Shown here piece after piece: positions 166-53,753 of a stretch of DNA of 64,000 nucleotides (position 1 is its first letter; the number at the start of each line of letters is the position of its first letter). The DNA is taken from positions 1-64,000 of the IMG/VR virus record IMGVR_UViG_3300031539_010038; one strand, written 5' to 3'. Position numbers and translations under genes: made by a program. The notes under the pieces were generated by a model. That model saw only the letters and a list, made by a program, of their open reading frames with translations. It had not been told where the DNA came from and searched no databases. The stretch is from a virus.

Positions 166-219
166 CTTATGTTTCATACTATGATTGTGCTAAAAAATAC
201 AGTAAAGGACACATGTAAT

Positions 220-462
220 ATGAATCTTCTTATAGAATATACAAGAGAAAAATATTTCAAAATAACAGATAGACGAACAGCCGTTCCCCTTGTCACAATT
301 GTTGTGACAAGCGTGGAGAATACTAAGATTACTGATTGGTCTGGAAATATAATGTATTCTGAGACAGGTTTTAATAAAGGATTATTTAGTAGTTTTTCCT
401 CGACGACAGAAGATTGCTGGTCTCAAATTTCAAAGAAAGAGGCTGAAGGGTACTGTAAATGA
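220..462 (+). CDS. Tiny paralog family, Y-x-R-E type, copy 1
   Basis: This 80-residue protein is of unknown function. An upstream in-frame ATG exists at 169, but 220 is chosen because from there it matches its neighbours: it begins MNLLIEYTREKYF and ends with a W-x-Q-I-S-K-K motif before a short helix. AAAGG lies about 10 bases upstream. It opens a run of seven related ORFs (220-2434) and overlaps the next by ATGA, so the two are probably translationally coupled. No signal peptide or membrane segment is seen. Confidence 0.7.
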   Translation: MNLLIEYTREKYFKITDRRTAVPLVTIVVTSVENTKITDWSGNIMYSETGFNKGLFSSFSSTTEDCWSQISKKEAEGYCK

Positions 463-704
463 ATCTTATCCTAAAATATAAAAGAGAAAAGTATTTTTTA
501 TACAGTTTTAATGGCCTCTTTACTTTAGTAAAGACGGATCGAGTTAATACCAATCGACATAACTGGATGGGCCGAATATTATTTAGTACTGAGGGCCATT
601 CGAAAGGCTGGGGGCCTTGTTCAAGTACCAAGAGTCACTCTGGTTGGAAACAGCTTGCTAAAAAACAAGCAATAGAGATATTGGAATCTAAGCCTTGCGT
701 CTAA
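459..704 (+). CDS. Tiny paralog family, Y-x-R-E type, copy 2
   Basis: This 81-residue protein has unknown function. It starts MNLILKYKREKYFL and near the C-terminus has GWKQLAKKQA, aligned to the W-x-[QK]-[ILV]-[SA]-K motif of its neighbours. Its start overlaps the stop of the previous gene by ATGA. The middle of the protein shares little with the other copies, so the ends are conserved and the centre is variable. Confidence 0.7.
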   Translation: MNLILKYKREKYFLYSFNGLFTLVKTDRVNTNRHNWMGRILFSTEGHSKGWGPCSSTKSHSGWKQLAKKQAIEILESKPCV

Positions 705-746
705 TAAATATTAATAAATAAAGGATAACAAATCGTAGGAGGTAAT

Positions 747-1034
747 ATGTCTGATGGAACAGCGGCCCAGGTTTTTGGATTAATCTTCGAGCGTATTGGT
801 AAAGATCCGCCAGATGATAGGCGGGCGGAATTGATTAATGATATTCATGACCTTATGAGTGATTATGATTTTGATTATAATGAGATGAATTGTGACGAGG
901 AGCTGATTGAATTTGGTATAGCCAGGTATGGAATTCATAAAGAGAATTCTGAAAATGGCGAGGAAAGCATCATCTATTATCCTTTTGATGATGAGCTAGA
1001 ATTTGATGATGAGGATGATGAGGATGACGATTAA
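747..1034 (+). CDS. Small acidic protein
   Basis: This 95-residue protein is of unknown function. A strong ribosome binding site (GTAGGAGG) lies 6-7 bases before the ATG, better than those of its neighbours, so it is probably well expressed. The last dozen residues are almost all Asp or Glu. Such tails occur in DNA mimics and in proteins that bind basic partners, but nothing here proves that. It does not belong to the tiny paralog family that surrounds it. Confidence 0.75.
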   Translation: MSDGTAAQVFGLIFERIGKDPPDDRRAELINDIHDLMSDYDFDYNEMNCDEELIEFGIARYGIHKENSENGEESIIYYPFDDELEFDDEDDEDDD

Positions 1035-1093
1035 TCTTAATGAGAGATGGGGAATCTCTTATGAGAGCGAGAGCCCTCGCTGGAGGAGACGCA

Positions 1094-1366
1094 ATGAAAC
1101 TATTGATGGAACATGAGAGAGAGCGGTATTTTCTCCAAGCCTCGGGAGAATATTGGAATGTCATAAAGCAGGAGGGGTCTTCCTACGGATATATGATTGG
1201 GTCATCATTTATTGCACCACATCTGTGGTTAAAGTACTCTAAAATTAGTTCCGATATGGTTCAGGTTTCTAAAGAAGTCGCGGAAAACTATATGATAGAT
1301 CATCGAGAGGATATTGAAATTATTAGAGCCGCGCGCCGTGCCGCGAGCCGGCTTCTAAGATCATGA
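1094..1366 (+). CDS. Tiny paralog family, Y-x-R-E type, copy 3
   Basis: This 90-residue protein is of unknown function. The start is set at 1094, not the upstream in-frame ATG at 1040, because GGAGGAG sits just before it and the protein then begins MKLLMEHERERYF like its relatives. It shares EYWNV in the first third and Y-x-IDH-x2-DIE near the end with copy 7 (2168-2434), so these two form a sub-pair. Its C-terminal motif is M-V-Q-V-S-K, with Met in place of Trp. It ends in a basic, Arg-rich tail and overlaps the next gene by ATGA. Confidence 0.75.
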   Translation: MKLLMEHERERYFLQASGEYWNVIKQEGSSYGYMIGSSFIAPHLWLKYSKISSDMVQVSKEVAENYMIDHREDIEIIRAARRAASRLLRS

Positions 1367-1644
1367 ATCTACTGCTTAAATATAAGCGGGAAATGTTCTT
1401 CAGAAATGGAGGAACTATGCTTGCAAAAAGCAACAGTCCCAGCCCCGGCTATGACGCATCTCTAACATATAAAGCATATATGTTATATGAGGGACTTTGT
1501 CCTGAATTACACGAATGTGATTATAGGTTTAATCTTCCAAATGGATCTTGGAGGCAAGTTTCTAGGCGGGATGCGATGGATTATCTATCCTCAGTCCTGG
1601 CTTATTATGAGGCATCAAGAAGAATTAGTGTGGGGCTAGAATGA
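1363..1644 (+). CDS. Tiny paralog family, Y-x-R-E type, copy 4
   Basis: This 93-residue protein is of unknown function. It begins MNLLLKYKREMFF and carries SWRQVSRRDAMDYL, the C-terminal W-x-Q-V-S motif followed by a helix. It overlaps both neighbours by ATGA, so copies 3, 4 and 5 form one tightly coupled unit. The central region holds a family-unrelated stretch with two Cys residues. Confidence 0.7.
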   Translation: MNLLLKYKREMFFRNGGTMLAKSNSPSPGYDASLTYKAYMLYEGLCPELHECDYRFNLPNGSWRQVSRRDAMDYLSSVLAYYEASRRISVGLE

Positions 1645-1886
1645 AATTCCTAATGGAATACGAGAGGGAAGTGTTTTTTCTTTTCTCTGATAAAGAATGT
1701 CTTGCGGTGACAAATCTGCGTGATCCAAAGAAGGGATACGTTTTATATCAAAAGGGCCACGAGCGAAGAAAATGTAGTACATTTGTCTCATTTAACTCAA
1801 AATCATGGACTCAAGTTTCTAAAAAACAAGCCATAGAATTCCTTATTCTTAAGGGTTTGGAAGAAAAGGATACTCTTCCTTCATAA
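1641..1886 (+). CDS. Tiny paralog family, Y-x-R-E type, copy 5
   Basis: This 81-residue protein is of unknown function. It begins MKFLMEYEREVFFLF and has SWTQVSKKQAIEFL near the C-terminus, the clearest version of the shared end motif. It overlaps the previous gene by ATGA. Twenty bases separate it from the next copy, which has its own AGAGAGG site. Confidence 0.7.
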   Translation: MKFLMEYEREVFFLFSDKECLAVTNLRDPKKGYVLYQKGHERRKCSTFVSFNSKSWTQVSKKQAIEFLILKGLEEKDTLPS

Positions 1887-1905
1887 AAGAAGAGAGGTAT
1901 GAATA

Positions 1906-2184
1906 ATGAAATTATTAGCAAAATATGACCGTATTTCCTACTATAGATTAAATGGCGGCTCCATTCTTTTAAAAGAAGTTCATGGAAATGATAAACAAAT
2001 TATTATATTTCGGGACGCGGGAAAACTAACCATACATCAACTAGATGTCAGAAATACAAAAATTTGGACAAAAATATCTTTGCAGCAAGCCAAAGAATAT
2101 CTTCTAGAGAATCTGTCTTCAGAAGAAGCGATGCGCAGGATCAAGCTCTCTTATGAGGATATTCATTATGAAATTACTTTTTGA
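1906..2184 (+). CDS. Tiny paralog family, Y-x-R-E type, copy 6
   Basis: This 92-residue protein is of unknown function. It begins MKLLAKYDRISYYRL, a diverged form of the family start in which the Glu after Arg is replaced by Ile. It keeps IWTKISLQQAKEYLL near the C-terminus. AGAGAGG lies upstream of the ATG. Its end overlaps the start of copy 7 by 17 bases. Confidence 0.7.
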   Translation: MKLLAKYDRISYYRLNGGSILLKEVHGNDKQIIIFRDAGKLTIHQLDVRNTKIWTKISLQQAKEYLLENLSSEEAMRRIKLSYEDIHYEITF

Positions 2185-2434
2185 ATATGAGCGAGAGATC
2201 TATTTTGTTGATAGATCCAATGAGTATTGGAATGTTTTTGTTTCAAGTTCCCCTCCAATTTCTGGAGGGGACAAAAAGGTGATAGCGTCATCATATTCAT
2301 TCAACAAAACACGCTGGATTTTTCTGGCGAAAGAATCTACTGCATATTTTAATATGAAACAAATCTCGAAAAGAGACGCCTTGAACTACTCAATAGACCA
2401 CATCAAAGATATTGAGAGAAATCTTTCGAGATAA
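2168..2434 (+). CDS. Tiny paralog family, Y-x-R-E type, copy 7
   Basis: This 88-residue protein is of unknown function. The ATG at 2168 (not 2153) gives the family start MKLLFEYEREIYF. It shares EYWNV and the C-terminal Y-x-IDH-x2-DIE with copy 3, and ends with M-K-Q-I-S-K-R-D-A. It is the last member of the first tandem array. A tRNA gene follows 24 bases later. Confidence 0.7.
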   Translation: MKLLFEYEREIYFVDRSNEYWNVFVSSSPPISGGDKKVIASSYSFNKTRWIFLAKESTAYFNMKQISKRDALNYSIDHIKDIERNLSR

Positions 2435-2458: not shown

Positions 2459-2544
2459 AAGGGAGTAACTCAGCCAGGTCAGAGTGCCGATTTTGGGGAT
2501 CGGAAGCCAGTAGGTATACGCAGGTTCGAATCCTGTCTCCCTTA
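2459..2544 (+). tRNA. tRNA-Pro(TGG)
   Basis: The cloverleaf is complete: acceptor AAGGGAG/CTCCCTT, a D-loop containing GG, anticodon stem CCGAT/ATCGG with anticodon TGG at 2494-2496, and T-arm GCAGG/CCTGT with the standard TTCGAAT loop. No CCA is encoded. The variable region is about 16 bases, unusually long for tRNA-Pro, which normally has a short one. TGG reads CCA and, with wobble, other Pro codons. Confidence 0.9.
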
Positions 2545-5136: not shown

Positions 5137-5178
5137 TAATCAGCAGAAATATAATCTTGCTTGCAATGAGCAAGATAT

Positions 5179-5224
5179 GTCCCCATGGTCTAGTCCAGCA
5201 TCAGTTCGAATCTGATTGGGGACA
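5179..5224 (+). ncRNA. Miniature tRNA-like RNA with no anticodon arm
   Basis: Bases 5179-5185 (GTCCCCA) pair perfectly with 5217-5223 (TGGGGAC) as a 7-bp acceptor stem. A perfect T-arm follows the usual geometry (5200-5216: ATCAG, loop TTCGAAT, CTGAT). TGGTCTAGTCCA lies where a D-arm should be. Nothing remains that could be an anticodon arm, and the whole RNA is 46 nt. Acceptor and D-arm start resemble bacterial tRNA-Glu (GTCCCC..., GTCTAG), so it may be a decapitated tRNA-Glu. An 8-bp hairpin (5154-5176) sits 2 bases upstream. It could be a decaying gene or a functional tRNA mimic. Confidence 0.6.
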
Positions 5225-5259
5225 CGATTGCTAGGCTGAAGATCTCGTCTGCTCAGACA

Positions 5260-5372
5260 TTAGACTATTAGGATTGAGTTTCTAGTAGTCTAACTTTTGC
5301 ACGGGCCAAAAGCTTGTGCGATTCGCTGCTCATGGCAATTAGATCATCAGGATTGATTTCTTGATGGTCTAA
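5260..5372 (+). ncRNA. Twin covarying RNA hairpins with a conserved loop
   Basis: Two copies of one hairpin lie in tandem. Copy A is 5260-5293 (12-bp stem) and copy B is 5339-5372 (11-bp stem). Both keep the loop core GGATTGA and TTAGA/TCTAA at the base. Stem differences are compensated: T-A becomes C-G at pairs 7 and 10, and pairs 6 and 9 switch between Watson-Crick and G-T. GGGCC follows each copy. A third hairpin (GGCCCC/GGGGCC, 5458-5480) lies before tRNA-Ile. This 5225-5518 stretch therefore looks like structured RNA. A minus-strand ORF (5268-5492) exists but has no ribosome binding site. Confidence 0.6.
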
Positions 5373-5518
5373 CAGAGTATTTTGGGCCACCAGAAATATT
5401 CTCATCTTGTTCTTGATTCGTTGGGATGCTGCTGTTTTTGCTATGGTGGCAACTTTTGGCCCCATCATCTGGTTGGGGCCGCACACACACAAAGGAATTG
5501 GTAAACGTATATAAATTT

Positions 5519-5593
5519 AGACTCGTAGCTCAGTCGGCTTAGAGCAACATTCTGATACAATGTGTGTCGGTGGTTCGAATCCACCCGGGTCTA
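5519..5593 (+). tRNA. tRNA-Ile(GAT)
   Basis: The cloverleaf is complete: acceptor AGACTCG/CGGGTCT with one G-T pair, D-arm CTCAGTCGGCTTAGAGC, anticodon stem ACATT/AATGT with GAT at 5554-5556, and T-arm GGTGG/CCACC with loop TTCGAAT. No CCA is encoded. It closes a stretch of RNA elements and is followed by an intrinsic terminator. Confidence 0.93.
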
Positions 5594-5605
5594 CTAAAAT
5601 ATGGC

Positions 5606-5625
5606 GAGCAGGCTTGCTCTTTTTT
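5606..5625 (+). terminator. Intrinsic terminator after tRNA-Ile
   Basis: GAGCA (5606-5610) pairs with TGCTC (5615-5619) across a 4-base loop and runs into a tract of six T. The stem is short, but position and T-run fit a rho-independent terminator for the tRNA/RNA transcript. Confidence 0.65.
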
Positions 5626-5642
5626 CTTAAAGGCTAAGGCAA

Positions 5643-5849
5643 ATGAATTTATTGTTATGTGTTCTTATTCCTGGCGAATACTATATGCTCAAGGCTAGCT
5701 TTAAAGAGTATAGAAGATACCTACGCCTGGATAGTGACGGCGTTCCACTTTTTGAAGATGTGAACCAACGGCGGTTCTGCGATCAAGGAATACCCATTCA
5801 TAGAGTGGCCGAAGTTTATGATTACCTAGGAAAGGAGCTTCCAAAATGA
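5643..5849 (+). CDS. Tiny paralog family, L-L-x-x-x-I-P-G type, copy 1
   Basis: This 68-residue protein is of unknown function. It begins MNLLLCVLIPGEYYML, closely matched by the next ORF (MNLLLNVFIPGEIWEC). AAGG lies upstream. It overlaps the next gene by ATGA. The start resembles the Y-x-R-E group at 220-2434, which suggests one larger superfamily. Confidence 0.7.
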   Translation: MNLLLCVLIPGEYYMLKASFKEYRRYLRLDSDGVPLFEDVNQRRFCDQGIPIHRVAEVYDYLGKELPK

Positions 5850-6687: not shown

Positions 6688-7263
6688 GTGAATATAGAAA
6701 AACTGAAAGAACTTCGAGAGAAAACGAATGTTTCTATGAATGCTTGCCGGAAAGCTCTAGAGGAATCTTCCGGCGATATGGATAAGGCTATTAAGATCTT
6801 AAAGACCAAAAGTCTTATGGTTGCTGGAGATGTATCGGAAAAATCTACATCAGAAGGTAAGATTTGTTCTTATATCCATCCTGGAAATAAGCTTGCTGTT
6901 TTGCTTGAAGTCCAATGCGAGACAGATTTTGCGGCAAGATCCGAGGATTTTAACCAATTTTGTGAAAGCGTATACCTTCAAATTGCAGGGATGAGCCCTA
7001 TTTATCTATCAAGAGATCAGGTTGATGATGATAAGTATAAAGATCAAAGAGAAATCTTTACAGCTCAGGTCAAGGATAAACCAGAAAAGATTCAAGAGAA
7101 AATTATAGAAGGTAAATTTAATAAATGGTTCGGTGATGTCTGCCTCTTGGAGCAAAAGCTGGTTCAAGATAATGATAAAACCGTTAAGCAATTAAGAGAT
7201 GAACTTATCGGAAAACTTCGAGAGAACGTGGTAATAAAGCGTTTCGTGCGTTGGGAAATATGA
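6688..7263 (+). CDS. tsf: Translation elongation factor Ts homolog
   Basis: EF-Ts reloads EF-Tu with GTP during elongation. This 191-residue protein keeps the N-terminal UBA-like helices (LREKTNVSMNACRKALEE, residues 9-26), the core QCETDF motif (77-81 region) that inserts next to the EF-Tu nucleotide site, and a C-terminal EGKFNKWF...LLEQ segment. It is shorter than the roughly 280-residue E. coli protein, mainly through a reduced dimerisation part. The start codon is GTG, directly after the previous stop. EF-Ts is rare in phages. It joins IF-3, bS21 and other translation genes in this window. Q-beta phage uses host EF-Ts in its replicase, so a non-translation role is also possible. Confidence 0.93.
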   Translation: MNIEKLKELREKTNVSMNACRKALEESSGDMDKAIKILKTKSLMVAGDVSEKSTSEGKICSYIHPGNKLAVLLEVQCETDFAARSEDFNQFCESVYLQIAGMSPIYLSRDQVDDDKYKDQREIFTAQVKDKPEKIQEKIIEGKFNKWFGDVCLLEQKLVQDNDKTVKQLRDELIGKLRENVVIKRFVRWEI

Positions 7264-10440: not shown

Positions 10441-10445
10441 CAGGT

Positions 10446-10498
10446 CCTTTCGGCCTCTTTAAGGATCACATAAAAACCAATCCTTAAAGAGCCAAAGG
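10446..10498 (+). other. Long RNA hairpin after groES
   Basis: Bases 10452-10466 pair with 10480-10493 (14 bp with one bulged C), and CCTTT (10446-10450) pairs with AAAGG (10494-10498) to extend the stem. No T-run follows; the next bases are the -35 box of a promoter. It may protect the groES mRNA 3' end or separate it from the downstream RNA unit. Confidence 0.65.
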
Positions 10499-10500
10499 GC

Positions 10501-10528
10501 TTGACGCTTGGCTCCGGTTGGCTATAAT
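10501..10528 (+). promoter_or_regulatory. Strong sigma70-type promoter for the structured RNA/tRNA unit
   Basis: TTGACG (10501-10506), 16 bases, then TATAAT (10523-10528), a perfect -10. Transcription should start near 10535 and cover a 240-base non-coding stretch and the tRNA-Leu-like RNA. GC precedes the -35 and GGC the -10, as at other promoters here. Confidence 0.88.
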
Positions 10529-10534
10529 ACGGAT

Positions 10535-10775
10535 GTTAGATTGACCAGATGCCGATGAAACAATCGACCAAAGATACGGGAGTAGCTAGCTCTCTCAATA
10601 AGGGATGGAGAGAGTCCCTTTCAGATCCTTTTAGCAAGATCTGATAAGTCTCAAACCTTGGTTTGACCCAGGGTCTTCCCGAGACATCTCCAAATCTCGG
10701 GAGCACTAATGAAAAAGTCTACAAAAAAATTAATTTTATGATAAGATGTAGATGAGTATCTAGTGCTCTCTTTTA
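10535..10775 (+). ncRNA. Promoter-driven structured RNA of unknown family
   Basis: No ORF is supported in these 240 bases. Several perfect hairpins occur: CTCTCTC/GAGAGAG (10590-10614); an alternative AAGGGA/TCCCTT (10600-10620) that competes or pseudoknots with it; TCAGATC/GATCTGA (10621-10644); TCAAAC/GTTTGA with a CTTG tetraloop (10651-10666); TCCCGAGA/TCTCGGGA (10677-10702); and TGCTCT/AGAGCA (10764-10780), which invades the start of the tRNA-like RNA. I see no RNase P, tmRNA or 6S signature. It is probably a small RNA, or a long structured leader processed off the tRNA-like RNA. Confidence 0.6.
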
Positions 10776-10867
10776 GAGCAGTTGGCGGAATTGGCAGACG
10801 CGACAGGGTACTTCGGTATTCTGTTGGCCGCAAGGTCGTCCAGGTTCAAGTCCTGGACTGCTCACCA
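10776..10867 (+). ncRNA. tRNA-Leu-like RNA with a UUCG hairpin instead of an anticodon
   Basis: The acceptor GAGCAGT/ACTGCTC, discriminator A, encoded CCA (10865-10867), Leu-type D-arm (GCGGAATTGGCAGACGC), long variable arm (GGCC, GCAA tetraloop, GGTC) and T-arm (CCAGG, TTCAAGT, CCTGG) are all intact. Where the anticodon arm should be, 10803-10811 pair with 10816-10824 as 9 continuous base pairs capped by TTCG (10812-10815). No register leaves a 7-base loop with T33, so no anticodon is presented. It could be charged or processed like a tRNA but could not decode. Confidence 0.75.
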
Positions 10868-10896
10868 CAAAACAAAAAAAAAAAAAAAGACATGAA

Positions 10897-11622
10897 ATGG
10901 AATATGATAATTATCTAGAAGCGGTAGAGATTACATCTGAAATGAAGAAAGCTGGGAAAGATCCCAGCTTTCTTAGTTTTTGCATCAAATATTTAGACGA
11001 TGATATACTAAAATATCTTAGGCTTTGGAATGATGATCGCTGGAATAATAATCACATTCAAGATCTTAATTATATTTTAGATAAACATGTTTATTTAACA
11101 AAGGCTATGGATTATAGCAGAGCTTTGCGAGAGTGGCTATCGATCAGGTTGAAAAATGGGCAAGAATATCCGACAAATGTCGACCAGCTTCTGGCTGATA
11201 TTGAGCACTCTGCTCTTCTTCCCAGAATATTAAATGGAGATAAAATTTATCCGGAGCCTCCACCTGGTAGTTGGTATGATCTTATAGAAAAAGGAAAAGC
11301 TAAAACCATTTCTCTTAAAGAGTATGGGAAAACATTATTGATTGATCAATCAATATGGAATATAATTGAAAAAGTAAAGGATGGGGAGTGGGTGGCGTCC
11401 TATGAGATAATAGACGCTGAGGCGCTAGAAAAGATAGCAAAGGATCACGAGCGCACATTGGAGGACGTACTGCATGAGATGCAGTATGCTTTGCCAAAGA
11501 GATTAGCTAGCACAAGATGGAAGATATCTTACCTTGGCAAAGAGAATATTTCTACAATCGGTCAACCATATATGGCTGATACCTGGGAAATTTGCAAACT
11601 GTTTTTGAAAATAGGAGAATAA
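10897..11622 (+). CDS. Hypothetical protein, 241 aa
   Basis: This is a soluble, mostly helical protein of unknown function with no recognised domain. The first 120 residues are rich in Asp, Tyr and Leu; near residues 120-135 there is a Pro-rich turn (YPEPPPGSWYD). A run of about 15 A lies 15-25 bases before the ATG, with no clear Shine-Dalgarno site, so translation may rely on A-rich initiation. It follows the tRNA-Leu-like RNA and is probably on the same transcript. Confidence 0.75.
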   Translation: MEYDNYLEAVEITSEMKKAGKDPSFLSFCIKYLDDDILKYLRLWNDDRWNNNHIQDLNYILDKHVYLTKAMDYSRALREWLSIRLKNGQEYPTNVDQLLADIEHSALLPRILNGDKIYPEPPPGSWYDLIEKGKAKTISLKEYGKTLLIDQSIWNIIEKVKDGEWVASYEIIDAEALEKIAKDHERTLEDVLHEMQYALPKRLASTRWKISYLGKENISTIGQPYMADTWEICKLFLKIGE

Positions 11623-16804: not shown

Positions 16805-17266
16805 ATGTATCTTTTATTGATTCGTCGAGATAAGATGTCTTTCATCTTAAAAATTAAGATGAAGAAGGCTCAAGATGATCCGTGGGTGCTGTATTTGGTG
16901 GTCAATAAGGACCTAAATATGGGATTGGGAAAAGTTGCTGCACAATGTGGACATGGCGTTGGGCAGCTCGATATTTATCATGAGAGTATCTTGACGAAGA
17001 GTCTTCAAGGCAAAAAGTTATCGAAGCAGGAGATGGCTCATTTCGATAGAGTTTCTTCTTGGAGAAAAGACTCATTTCGGAAGATAGTTCTTGAGGGGTC
17101 TAATAAGACCTGGAATAGATTAAAAAGCCTAGATTGCAAACATTTTATTGTTAGAGATGCCGGATTCACAGAAGTATCTCCTGGATCTGAAACGGTAATA
17201 GCATATTTGCCTATGCAAAAATCTCAAGTGCCAGAGCTTCTGGCTAAACTTCGACTACTTAAATAA
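16805..17266 (+). CDS. pth2: Peptidyl-tRNA hydrolase, Pth2 family
   Basis: Pth2 cleaves the ester bond of peptidyl-tRNA that drops off ribosomes, which recycles the tRNA. Motifs: LVVNKDLNMGLGKVAAQCGHG (residues 31-51) and FIVRDAGFTEVSPGSETVIA (114-133). Both match the archaeal/eukaryotic-type Pth2 fold, not the bacterial Pth1. About 20 residues precede the usual start; ATG codons at 16835 and 16859 are alternatives. Bacteria use Pth1, so this gene is an unusual acquisition that fits the phage's own translation set. Confidence 0.9.
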   Translation: MYLLLIRRDKMSFILKIKMKKAQDDPWVLYLVVNKDLNMGLGKVAAQCGHGVGQLDIYHESILTKSLQGKKLSKQEMAHFDRVSSWRKDSFRKIVLEGSNKTWNRLKSLDCKHFIVRDAGFTEVSPGSETVIAYLPMQKSQVPELLAKLRLLK

Positions 17267-19973: not shown

Positions 19974-20489
19974 ATGACCTCCTTAAATGTCATAAACAAA
20001 TATAGAGCTTGGACAAAAGACCTAATTAAAGAAGATTTGGTTAAGCATCCTTATGCTATCTGTCTGGAGCATTGGGATGGAGATTTTAATCTTGGAACGG
20101 CCATTCGTAATGCCAATGCTTTCGGGGCTAAGGAGGTCTTCTATTTAGGAGGCAAGAAGAAATGGGATAGGAGATCTGCGGTAGGTACGCATAATTATAC
20201 TGATGTTAAATTTCTTAATGACAGGGATGATTTAAATAATGTAAGGAAGACATATCCTTATTTAATTGGTATAGATAATATTCCTGGTGCTATCCCGGTG
20301 GAGTCCTATACTTTTCCAAGCAATTGTCTTCTTATATTTGGAGAAGAGGGCCTCGGCCTGACAGATGAGACAATAGCCATGTGCGATCTTCTTATTGAAA
20401 TAACAATGTGTGGTTCGGTGCGCTCATTAAATGCAGGAACCTCAACAGGAATTATTCTTCATAAAATAAACCAACAATATGCAATGTAA
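19974..20489 (+). CDS. SpoU/TrmH-family RNA 2'-O-ribose methyltransferase
   Basis: SPOUT methyltransferases use SAM to methylate a ribose in tRNA or rRNA. All three motifs are present: NLGTAIRNANAFGA (residues 39-52, with the catalytic Arg45), LLIFGEEGLGL (119-129) and ITMCGSVRSLNAGTS (143-157), which form the knotted SAM site. The length (171 aa) fits the TrmH/TrmL subgroup, which acts on tRNA. Target tRNAs could be the host's or the phage's own. It overlaps the next gene by 11 bases. Confidence 0.92.
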   Translation: MTSLNVINKYRAWTKDLIKEDLVKHPYAICLEHWDGDFNLGTAIRNANAFGAKEVFYLGGKKKWDRRSAVGTHNYTDVKFLNDRDDLNNVRKTYPYLIGIDNIPGAIPVESYTFPSNCLLIFGEEGLGLTDETIAMCDLLIEITMCGSVRSLNAGTSTGIILHKINQQYAM

Positions 20490-21295: not shown

Positions 21296-22144
21296 ATGGC
21301 AGATTCTCTGGCTGCAAGACAGCAACAATACGAAGAGGTGTCTAATATAGAGCTTACTCGAAGACTTCCGGTCATCATTAGATGTGATGGGCGAGGGTTC
21401 CACAAATTTACCAGCAAGCTGTCAAGACCTTTTAGTCCCTTATTGTTAGATGTTATGGTTCAGGCCATGACATATGCCGTTCAGGAGATGCCAGGAGCCA
21501 TATTTGCATATCAGCAATCAGATGAAATTACCTTTGTATTAAGGAATGACCAAACGTTTGATACAGAGCCATGGCATCAAAATAAGGTGCAAAAACTTGC
21601 CTCTGCATCTGCTGCATTAGTAACATTTGGCTTTAATAAAGCCTTAATGCAATGTGATCCAAAGCTTAGCACGGTAGGAGACGCTTTATTTGATGCTAAG
21701 GTATTTACTCTTCCATACTATAATGAGGTCCTAAATCATCTTATTTGGAGGCAACAGGATTGCATTCATAATGCAGTTTCAGCGGCTGCCTCGACAGAAC
21801 TGACAAAAAAGATTGGAAAAAAGACGGCAAGGAAACTTGTTCACAACAAAAGTATATCTGAAAAAGTAGATCTGCTTCGAACAAATTGCAAAATTGAATA
21901 TAATAAGCATTACCCTTCTCCATTTAGAAGGGGGGTCTTAGCGTGCAAGGTGCCAATAGCTTATCCTACAAAGGAAGGCGAGGTGACTCGTAATAAATGG
22001 ATAATTAATTCTGAAATACCTATATTTTCAGAAGATCGTGATTATATATATAATATTCTGATAAATGGTAGAGACGTGTTTAGAACAGGGATAACTAATG
22101 CAGAAAAAGCTAATATATCTTCAGTTGACAGATCTTCATCTTAA
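21296..22144 (+). CDS. Thg1-like protein (tRNA 3'-5' polymerase family)
   Basis: Thg1 adds G to the 5' end of tRNA-His; Thg1-like proteins repair truncated tRNA 5' ends by 3'-5' addition. The metal-binding palm is visible: PVIIRCDGRGFHKF (residues 25-38, Asp31), YQQSDEITF (72-80, Asp76/Glu77) and WRQQDCIHNAV (151-161), in the place of the Thg1 HINNLYN motif. The length (282 aa) is normal. Bacterial and phage members are usually the repair type. Together with aberrant tRNA-like RNAs in this window it suggests tRNA repair or maturation during infection. Its end overlaps the next gene by 47 bases. Confidence 0.9.
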   Translation: MADSLAARQQQYEEVSNIELTRRLPVIIRCDGRGFHKFTSKLSRPFSPLLLDVMVQAMTYAVQEMPGAIFAYQQSDEITFVLRNDQTFDTEPWHQNKVQKLASASAALVTFGFNKALMQCDPKLSTVGDALFDAKVFTLPYYNEVLNHLIWRQQDCIHNAVSAAASTELTKKIGKKTARKLVHNKSISEKVDLLRTNCKIEYNKHYPSPFRRGVLACKVPIAYPTKEGEVTRNKWIINSEIPIFSEDRDYIYNILINGRDVFRTGITNAEKANISSVDRSSS

Positions 22145-52624: not shown

Positions 52625-52701
52625 ATCCTCGAAAGCCATATCTATGCCTCTCCATATTGGAGAGGACAGGATACATTTACCCAAAACAAAAGGAACGAGC
52701 A

Positions 52702-53241
52702 TTGAGACAGAAGACCGAGAGAAGTTATGTAAATAGACAAATAAAACTACCAGAAGTTTTATGTATTGATATTGAAAATAATAACTTAGGGAAGATACCA
52801 ACAAATCAAGCATTAGAAATAGCTGAGAAGCAGGGGCTTGATTTGGTACAGGTTGGCTTTAATCAGCAATCCAGATTGCCAACGTGCAAAATTATGGACT
52901 ATGGCAAACATCGATATGAAGTTAGCAAGAAGCTGAAAGTGGCTCAAAAAAAGCAGAAAGAGTCTATTGTAAAAAATAAAGAAATAAAGTTGCGCCCAAC
53001 TACGGATATTCATGACTTAAAGGTAAAGGCCAAGAAGGTCGAGACCTTTTTGGATAAGAACTACAATGTTAAGATTGTCTTAATGTTTCGTGGAAGAGAG
53101 ATGTCTCATAAAGAAGTAGGGTTAGAAACATTAAATATGCTTATAAATCTCATTCCAAATGCGTCACTGAATAGTGAAATAAAATCTGAAGGAAAGGTTT
53201 TATCTGTATTATTGGTGAAATCAAATGCTGATCTGTCATGA
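52702..53241 (+). CDS. infC: Translation initiation factor IF-3
   Basis: IF-3 binds the 30S subunit, checks the start codon and initiator tRNA, and blocks early 50S joining. Here the N-domain ends at PTCKIMDYGKHRYE, followed by the Lys-rich linker, KEIKLRPTTDIHD, and VKIVLMFRGREMSHKE in the C-domain. The start is set at the TTG at 52702 with AAGGA 7 bases upstream, which gives 179 residues, near the E. coli length. Bacterial infC also uses a rare start (AUU) for self-control, so a non-AUG start may be meaningful. It overlaps the deformylase gene by ATGA. IF-3 in a phage is unusual. Confidence 0.95.
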   Translation: MRQKTERSYVNRQIKLPEVLCIDIENNNLGKIPTNQALEIAEKQGLDLVQVGFNQQSRLPTCKIMDYGKHRYEVSKKLKVAQKKQKESIVKNKEIKLRPTTDIHDLKVKAKKVETFLDKNYNVKIVLMFRGREMSHKEVGLETLNMLINLIPNASLNSEIKSEGKVLSVLLVKSNADLS

Positions 53242-53753
53242 TAATAACAGATGAAAATCTACTGAGAGCTGAGTGCTCTGAAGTTTCTCCAGAAGAGATT
53301 GCTCCACTGCGAGACCTCTTAGAGAAGGAGCTTCAGGACTCAGCTCGACTTGGACGCATAGGAGTTGGATTGGCAGCTCCACAGATAGGTATTTTTAAGA
53401 AAATGGCCATAGTCAGGCTCCCAGCATCGATGGGAAATTTTAATATTGACTTGGTTAACATCAAGGAGTACAAAGGATATGACAAGGTATTATTTAATAA
53501 TGAAGGATGCTTATCATTTCCAAATTATTATGTAGACAGTTTGAGATATCAGGAAATATATGTAACAAATAATGGAGTAGAACCATTCTCTTTTATTGCA
53601 ACAGGGATGGCGGCTATTTGTTGTCAGCATGAGATAGATCATCTTAGAGGTATTCTTCTAACAGATATTGGAATTCCCACAGATGCAGCCAAGAAAGCAA
53701 TCTTAAAAGCGCGCCAACCTCGCGGATGTCTGGCGCCAAATATTAAAGTATAG
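53238..53753 (+). CDS. def: Peptide deformylase
   Basis: Removes the formyl group from the first Met of new proteins. The three motifs are GVGLAAPQIG (42-51), EGCLSFP (89-95) and QHEIDHLRG (130-138), giving Cys91, His131 and His135 for the metal and Glu132 as catalyst. Phage deformylases are known, mostly in cyanophages. Coupling to IF-3 by a 4-base overlap links start-site choice to processing of the first residue. A terminator follows. Confidence 0.95.
   Translation: MIITDENLLRAECSEVSPEEIAPLRDLLEKELQDSARLGRIGVGLAAPQIGIFKKMAIVRLPASMGNFNIDLVNIKEYKGYDKVLFNNEGCLSFPNYYVDSLRYQEIYVTNNGVEPFSFIATGMAAICCQHEIDHLRGILLTDIGIPTDAAKKAILKARQPRGCLAPNIKV

What the first reader, a model, noticed from the sequence alone, without database searches (positions are those of the whole stretch)
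5179..5224. 46-nt tRNA mimic lacking the whole anticodon arm
A perfect 7-bp acceptor and a perfect T-arm with TTCGAAT loop are kept, but nothing connects them except a short D-like segment. The start resembles tRNA-Glu. Random decay would be expected to hit the stems too. This RNA keeps exactly the part (acceptor plus T-arm) read by RNase P, CCA-adding enzyme, EF-Tu and Pth.
Basis: seen in the sequence. Interest (0 to 1): 0.8.

Follow-up and report, generated by a model that had tools for sequence, protein, structure and literature searches.

The report
Phage tRNA-like RNA without anticodon arm
A very large bacterial virus carries a 46-base RNA element that keeps only the half of a transfer RNA seen by tRNA-processing enzymes and has lost the codon-reading half; it sits at the edge of a strongly folded non-coding region, and a second tRNA-like gene without a codon-reading loop sits at the edge of another, so such pieces may serve as cutting or capping marks rather than in translation, though a recent broken tRNA gene is not excluded.

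Summary
In detail: 5179-5224 has a 7-bp all-Watson-Crick acceptor, a 14-nt connector, a canonical T-arm and A73, and no anticodon arm. It is not chance: 0 hits in 100 Markov windows, and 0 of 698 T-arms in comparison sequences have a perfect 7-mer acceptor strand that close.

I add four things. (1) The contig is a huge-phage fragment rich in translation genes: EF-Ts, IF-3, peptide deformylase, Pth2-like, Thg1-like, SpoU. (2) It carries a second anticodon-less tRNA-like gene at 10776-10867: an otherwise complete tRNA-Leu with CCA, whose anticodon loop is replaced by a cUUCGg-capped 9-bp hairpin. (3) The two most structured of 96 windows in the first 24 kb are exactly those beside these two elements. 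(4) The folded stretch 5225-5518 lies between the mini-tRNA and a genuine tRNA-Ile.

Best explanation: a tRNA-Glu/Gln-derived element now used as a processing or capping module of a phage non-coding RNA, like plant mitochondrial t-elements. Main rival: a recent one-step internal deletion of a tRNA gene. No close relative was found, so conservation is untested; transcription and cleavage are also untested.

The parts
5154..5176 (+). Perfect 8-bp hairpin (ATCTTGCT-TGCAATG-AGCAAGAT) directly upstream of the mini-tRNA
   Evidence: sequence; forms in the MFE of 5137-5645
5179..5224 (+). 46-nt mini-tRNA: acceptor 5179-5185/5217-5223, connector 5186-5199, T-arm 5200-5216, A73 5224
5225..5518 (+). Predicted structured non-coding RNA (294 nt) between mini-tRNA and tRNA-Ile; z -5.6 for the region, and the 250-nt window 5251-5500 is the most structured of 96 in the first 24 kb
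   Evidence: no Rfam match
5260..5293 (+). Hairpin h1, copy 1 (12 bp)
5339..5372 (+). Hairpin h1, copy 2: all 12 pairs kept, 2 changed on both sides, 3 on one side
5519..5593 (+). Genuine tRNA-Ile (GAT), downstream border of the folded region
5606..5625 (+). Intrinsic-terminator-like hairpin with T-run after tRNA-Ile
10501..10528 (+). Sigma70-type promoter-like site TTGACG-16-TATAAT, best (11/12) in the first 17 kb
10535..10775 (+). Structured non-coding stretch upstream of the second tRNA-like gene (z -3.0; 10441-10775 z -4.6)
10776..10867 (+). tRNA-Leu-like gene with D-arm, long variable arm, T-arm, A73 and encoded CCA; the anticodon arm is a 9-bp hairpin closed by cUUCGg (12 nt in place of the 7-nt loop)
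   Evidence: missed by ARAGORN and Rfam
6688..7263 (+). Elongation factor Ts (context)
16805..17266 (+). Peptidyl-tRNA hydrolase Pth2-like protein (context)
   Evidence: Pfam PTH2 1.4e-21, over cut-off; NCBIfam Pth2 below cut-off
21296..22144 (+). Thg1-like (tRNA-His guanylyltransferase family) protein (context)

Best explanation
A phage-encoded, tRNA-derived element (from a Glu/Gln-type tRNA gene by loss of positions ~17-44) that no longer decodes but keeps the acceptor/T-arm minihelix. It most likely works as a t-element-like processing or capping module for the structured RNA at 5225-5518: RNase P cuts before 5179 and RNase Z (or another 3' nuclease) after 5224, RNase P also cuts before tRNA-Ile at 5519, and the folded ~294-nt RNA is released with defined ends. 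The tRNA-Leu-like gene with a UUCG-capped anticodon arm plays the matching role at the 3' edge of the second folded region (10535-10775). Shown: sequences, predicted pairing, non-chance, positions beside the two most structured windows, translation-rich gene set. Inferred: transcription, cleavage, and that the two elements do one job.
For: Non-chance acceptor/T-arm with all T-loop invariants. Folded region 5225-5518 is bordered by the mini-tRNA and by tRNA-Ile plus a terminator-like site. It contains two hairpin copies whose 12 pairs all survive their sequence differences; the G-U pairs exist only on the + strand. The second anticodon-less tRNA-like gene is independent in sequence and built up rather than decayed (against a normal phage tRNA-Leu), and borders the second most structured window, behind the best promoter-like site. 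In 2.15 Mb with 813 ARAGORN tRNAs, mostly from other phages, no other clear case of either element turned up (some irregular tRNAs in other huge phages were left unresolved). [quoted passage not shown] GOLLD and ROOL phage RNAs lie near tRNAs (PMC12286853).
Against: No homologue of the mini-tRNA or of the folded RNA was found, so there is no conservation test across phages. A single internal deletion suffices to make the mini-tRNA. The strong leader hairpin ending 2 nt before the expected cleavage site is not ideal for RNase P. In some contexts the acceptor pairs compete with other pairings (for the Leu-like gene the acceptor falls to 0.03-0.3 in several contexts). The two-copy covariation is small (116 of 500 shuffles equal it). 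No clear promoter precedes the first element.
Confidence: 0.4

Rival explanations
1. Recent tRNA pseudogene: one internal deletion in a tRNA-Glu/Gln-type gene removed positions ~17-44; stems are intact because it is young; it has no function.
For: The 5' part aligns to the D-arm start of Glu/Gln tRNAs at canonical positions and one event explains all of it. Irregular or shortened tRNAs occur in other huge phages (L014 4617-4690, L021 8269-8343). tRNA fragments are common in prokaryote genomes (PMC9897764).
Against: Does not explain the second, built-up anticodon-less tRNA-Leu in the same contig, nor that both lie beside the two most structured windows.
Confidence: 0.35
2. Decoy or regulator: free anticodon-less tRNA-like RNAs (CCA-tailed; the Leu-like one perhaps leucylated, since E. 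coli LeuRS largely ignores the anticodon, general knowledge) bind EF-Tu, Pth, CCA-adding enzyme or a host tRNA-targeting defence.
For: The recognition module is kept exactly; the phage encodes EF-Ts, Pth2-like and Thg1-like proteins acting in that neighbourhood; the Leu-like gene keeps A73, variable arm and CCA. Phage tRNAs with altered anticodon loops are proposed to resist anticodon nucleases (PMC10264068).
Against: No direct evidence; the mini-tRNA lacks the known minihelix identity element G3:U70, so charging is unlikely; does not explain the neighbouring folded regions.
Confidence: 0.15
3. The minihelix stays attached as a structural domain of one larger phage RNA (mini-tRNA + 5225-5518), in the manner of a tRNA scaffold or of tRNA-like parts of other viral RNAs.
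For: It lies directly against the folded region and forms in the 509-nt MFE.
Against: A minihelix of this form would be expected to be cut by RNase P; no homologues to define domain borders.
Confidence: 0.1

Closest known systems
Plant mitochondrial t-elements
   Same: tRNA-derived structures at transcript borders, dispensable for decoding; cut by RNase P/Z and CCA-tailed, not charged (PMC11658184)
   Different: Organellar; border mRNAs and rRNAs; here in a phage beside a folded non-coding region, cleavage untested
T4 species 1 RNA (rnaC)
   Same: Phage small stable RNA with a tRNA-like end: T-arm CCGGG-TTCGAAT-CCCGG and a 7-bp acceptor-like stem, no recognisable anticodon arm
   Different: 139 nt with large internal hairpins; no sequence relation shown; the window element is a bare minihelix
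mascRNA/menRNA of MALAT1 and MENbeta
   Same: Non-decoding tRNA mimic whose RNase P cleavage defines the end of a long non-coding RNA (PMC11693755, abstract)
   Different: Human nuclear, 3' end only, reduced but present cloverleaf (general knowledge)
GOLLD and ROOL RNAs
   Same: Large folded phage RNAs near tRNA genes (PMC12286853)
   Different: No Rfam match here; the folded region is shorter (about 294 nt)
tmRNA tRNA-like domain
   Same: Acceptor and T-arm without an anticodon arm
   Different: No tag reading frame or split 5'/3' domain seen; no ARAGORN or Rfam tmRNA hit

Membership tests
functional tRNA gene | anticodon arm with a 7-nt loop | tested here: not met
   absent at 5179-5224; replaced by a cUUCGg hairpin at 10776-10867
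functional tRNA gene | 7-bp acceptor, 5-bp T-stem, TTCRANY loop | tested here: met
t-element | tRNA-derived structure at the border of another transcript | tested here: inconclusive
   tRNA-derived 5' part and position beside folded region 5225-5518 fit; that a transcript has its border there is not shown
t-element | cleavage by RNase P/Z and CCA tailing in vivo | not testable with these tools
   no transcript data
tRNA pseudogene/fragment | explainable by deletion or truncation of a tRNA gene | tested here: met
   one internal deletion suffices
tRNA pseudogene/fragment | no conservation or selection | tested here: inconclusive
   no relatives found
GOLLD/ROOL | match to the family covariance model | tested here: not met
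tmRNA | ARAGORN/Rfam tmRNA match | tested here: not met

The most novel reading that the evidence does not exclude
Some huge phages use a set of anticodon-less tRNA-like modules (a bare minihelix; a tRNA-Leu with a tetraloop hairpin in place of the anticodon) as built-in ends or processing sites for large folded non-coding RNAs, a bacterial-virus counterpart of t-elements and mascRNA.
Probability: 0.3. Interest if true: 0.75.

Novelty: new variant of a known kind. Interest (0 to 1): 0.52.

Why it matters
If processed, it would show that a bacterial virus uses the host tRNA-processing machinery as punctuation for its own folded RNAs, and would give two new candidate structured phage RNAs with predicted ends. 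It also shows that anticodon-based tRNA finders miss such genes, so they may be under-counted in large phages.

Tried and rejected
(a) A mini-tRNA in LR756508 looked like an independent homologue sharing GGTCTAG; ARAGORN shows it is the 3' part of a full tRNA-Pro whose anticodon arm repeats the acceptor sequence: rejected. (b) 80 IMG/VR matches to GGTCTAG..GTTCGAATC: ordinary tRNAs, att-site-like tRNA halves or chance; none a 46-nt mini. (c) A hairpin-motif search for the folded RNA gave three unrelated hits without the hairpin. (d) UUCG tRNA-Leu pattern: one chance hit in viral contigs; 31 in GTDB, which were ordinary tRNA-Leu(UAA), coding or other chance matches, and one degenerate Leu-like case (L153). 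(e) L015 tRNA with an abnormal anticodon arm beside a seemingly structured region: z only -1.1, dropped. (f) L079, GAAA hairpin at the anticodon position: could be a degenerate tRNA-Phe(GAA), so not used. (g) A minus-strand ORF across the folded region (5268-5492, 74 aa): no family match. (h) Known Rfam families over the folded regions: none credible.

Full report
What is there. At 5179-5224 of the + strand lies GTCCCCA TGGTCTAGTCCAGC ATCAG TTCGAAT CTGAT TGGGGAC A. It is a tRNA top half: a 7-bp acceptor, all Watson-Crick, directly followed on the 3' strand by a 5-bp T-stem with a canonical T-loop, and A73. Between acceptor and T-stem on the 5' strand are 14 nt instead of the usual 40 or so. 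RNAfold predicts acceptor, a 3-bp mini-hairpin and T-arm (-17.3 kcal/mol). A direct scan for such architecture finds nothing with a short gap in 100 Markov copies of the window, and 0 of 698 distinct T-arms from the comparison loci has a perfect 7-mer acceptor strand that close. Neither ARAGORN nor Rfam reports it.

Origin. U8, A14, G15 and C48 stand where a tRNA has them, and positions 8-16 (TGGTCTAGT) are the start of a Glu/Gln-type D-arm; the best 5' matches among 536 phage and bacterial tRNAs are a tRNA-Glu (13 of 16) and a tRNA-Gln from huge phage LR756511 (9 of 9 at positions 8-16). One internal deletion of positions ~17-44 would make the element in one step. So intact stems do not by themselves prove selection.

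Host. The window belongs to a 70.9-kb virus record. It carries a ClpP-like protease, FtsK, TopA, SbcCD, DNA polymerase III alpha, trigger factor and GroES, and a set of translation genes: EF-Ts, IF-3, peptide deformylase, a Pth2-like protein, a Thg1-like protein and a SpoU methylase. This is the kind of gene content described for huge phages (PMC7162821). No close relative was found in IMG/VR or INPHARED.

A second anticodon-less tRNA-like gene. The same scan found 10776-10867, also missed by the tRNA finders: GAGCAGT TG GCG..CGC G ACAGGGTAC-UUCG-GTATTCTGT, variable arm GGCC-GCAA-GGTC, T-arm, ACTGCTC A CCA. Aligned to a normal phage tRNA-Leu(CAG) (MT835490) it keeps D-arm, variable arm, T-arm, A73 and CCA, while the 7-nt anticodon loop is replaced by 12 nt that extend the anticodon stem to 9 bp under a cUUCGg tetraloop (hairpin pair probability 0.97-1.0). 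This is not what simple decay would look like.

Both elements border folded regions. Of 96 successive 250-nt windows in the first 24 kb, the most structured against dinucleotide shuffles is 5251-5500 (z -7.3) and the second is 10751-11000 (z -5.1), with mean -1.0 and s.d. 1.3. The second of these windows contains the Leu-like gene itself and a terminator-like hairpin, but the stretch upstream of it (10441-10775) alone has z -4.6. Region 5225-5518 (z -5.6) lies between the mini-tRNA and a genuine tRNA-Ile, with a terminator-like site behind it. It holds two 34-nt hairpin copies that differ at 9 of 34 positions yet keep all 12 pairs, two of them by changes on both sides, and whose G-U pairs exist only in the + strand; with two copies this is supportive, not strong (116 of 500 shuffles do as well). 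The second folded region follows the best promoter-like site of the first 17 kb. Neither region matches an Rfam family, GOLLD and ROOL included.

How rare. In 2.15 Mb (205 loci, mostly phage, with 813 ARAGORN tRNAs) the scan gave 414 distinct acceptor/T-arm hits; the only true short-gap mini was the window's. Some irregular tRNAs occur in other huge phages, so irregular tRNA genes do arise there. T4 species 1 RNA, long known and of unknown function, also ends in a tRNA-like acceptor/T-arm without a recognisable anticodon arm.

Mechanism. I favour a t-element-like role: the minihelix is the part that RNase P, RNase Z and CCA-adding enzyme read (general knowledge), it lies at the 5' border of a folded RNA whose 3' border is a real tRNA, and plant mitochondria use such elements for transcript ends; [quoted passage not shown] Transcription and cleavage are inferred. 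The main rival, a young pseudogene, explains the mini-tRNA alone but not the Leu-like gene or the shared setting. A decoy role is possible and untested.

Limits. No expression data, no homologues, one contig; the mini-tRNA fold competes with other pairings in some contexts. The comparison set is not a random sample: many loci were fetched because they carry tRNA-like motifs.

Noticed in passing
window 10776-10867: tRNA-Leu-like gene whose anticodon loop is replaced by a cUUCGg-capped 9-bp hairpin; invisible to ARAGORN and Rfam.
   Followed up: yes
window 16805-17266, 19974-20489, 21296-22144, 52657-53753: Translation and tRNA genes of the phage: Pth2-like, SpoU methylase, Thg1-like protein, IF-3 and peptide deformylase, besides EF-Ts at 6688.
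   Followed up: partly
window 2459-2544: tRNA-Pro(TGG) with an unusually long variable region.
   Followed up: no
L079 9576-9655 (IMGVR_UViG_3300020084_000003): tRNA-like gene with an extended acceptor stem and a CCC-GAAA-GGG hairpin at the anticodon position in a 285-kb phage contig; missed by ARAGORN, perhaps a degenerate tRNA-Phe.
   Followed up: partly
L015 1318-1403 (IMGVR_UViG_3300034025_000011): tRNA-like gene (Rfam 43.5 bits) with an enlarged anticodon loop containing CCUUCGGGG, in a phage contig with a terminase-like gene.
   Followed up: partly
L153 (uncultured Clostridiales RUG060, OMXI01000071.1): Degenerate Leu-like tRNA without variable arm and with GCUUCGGG at the anticodon position.
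   Followed up: no
L203 12878-13102 (LR756508): HEARO RNA in a huge phage genome (Rfam 144 bits).
   Followed up: no
window 10945-10974: Strong terminator-like hairpin inside the start of ORF 10897-11622, suggesting a later true start or attenuation.
   Followed up: no
window 169-2434: Run of short tandem ORFs with similar starts (MNLL.EY.REKYF, MKLL.EYERE..F), probably paralogues.
   Followed up: no
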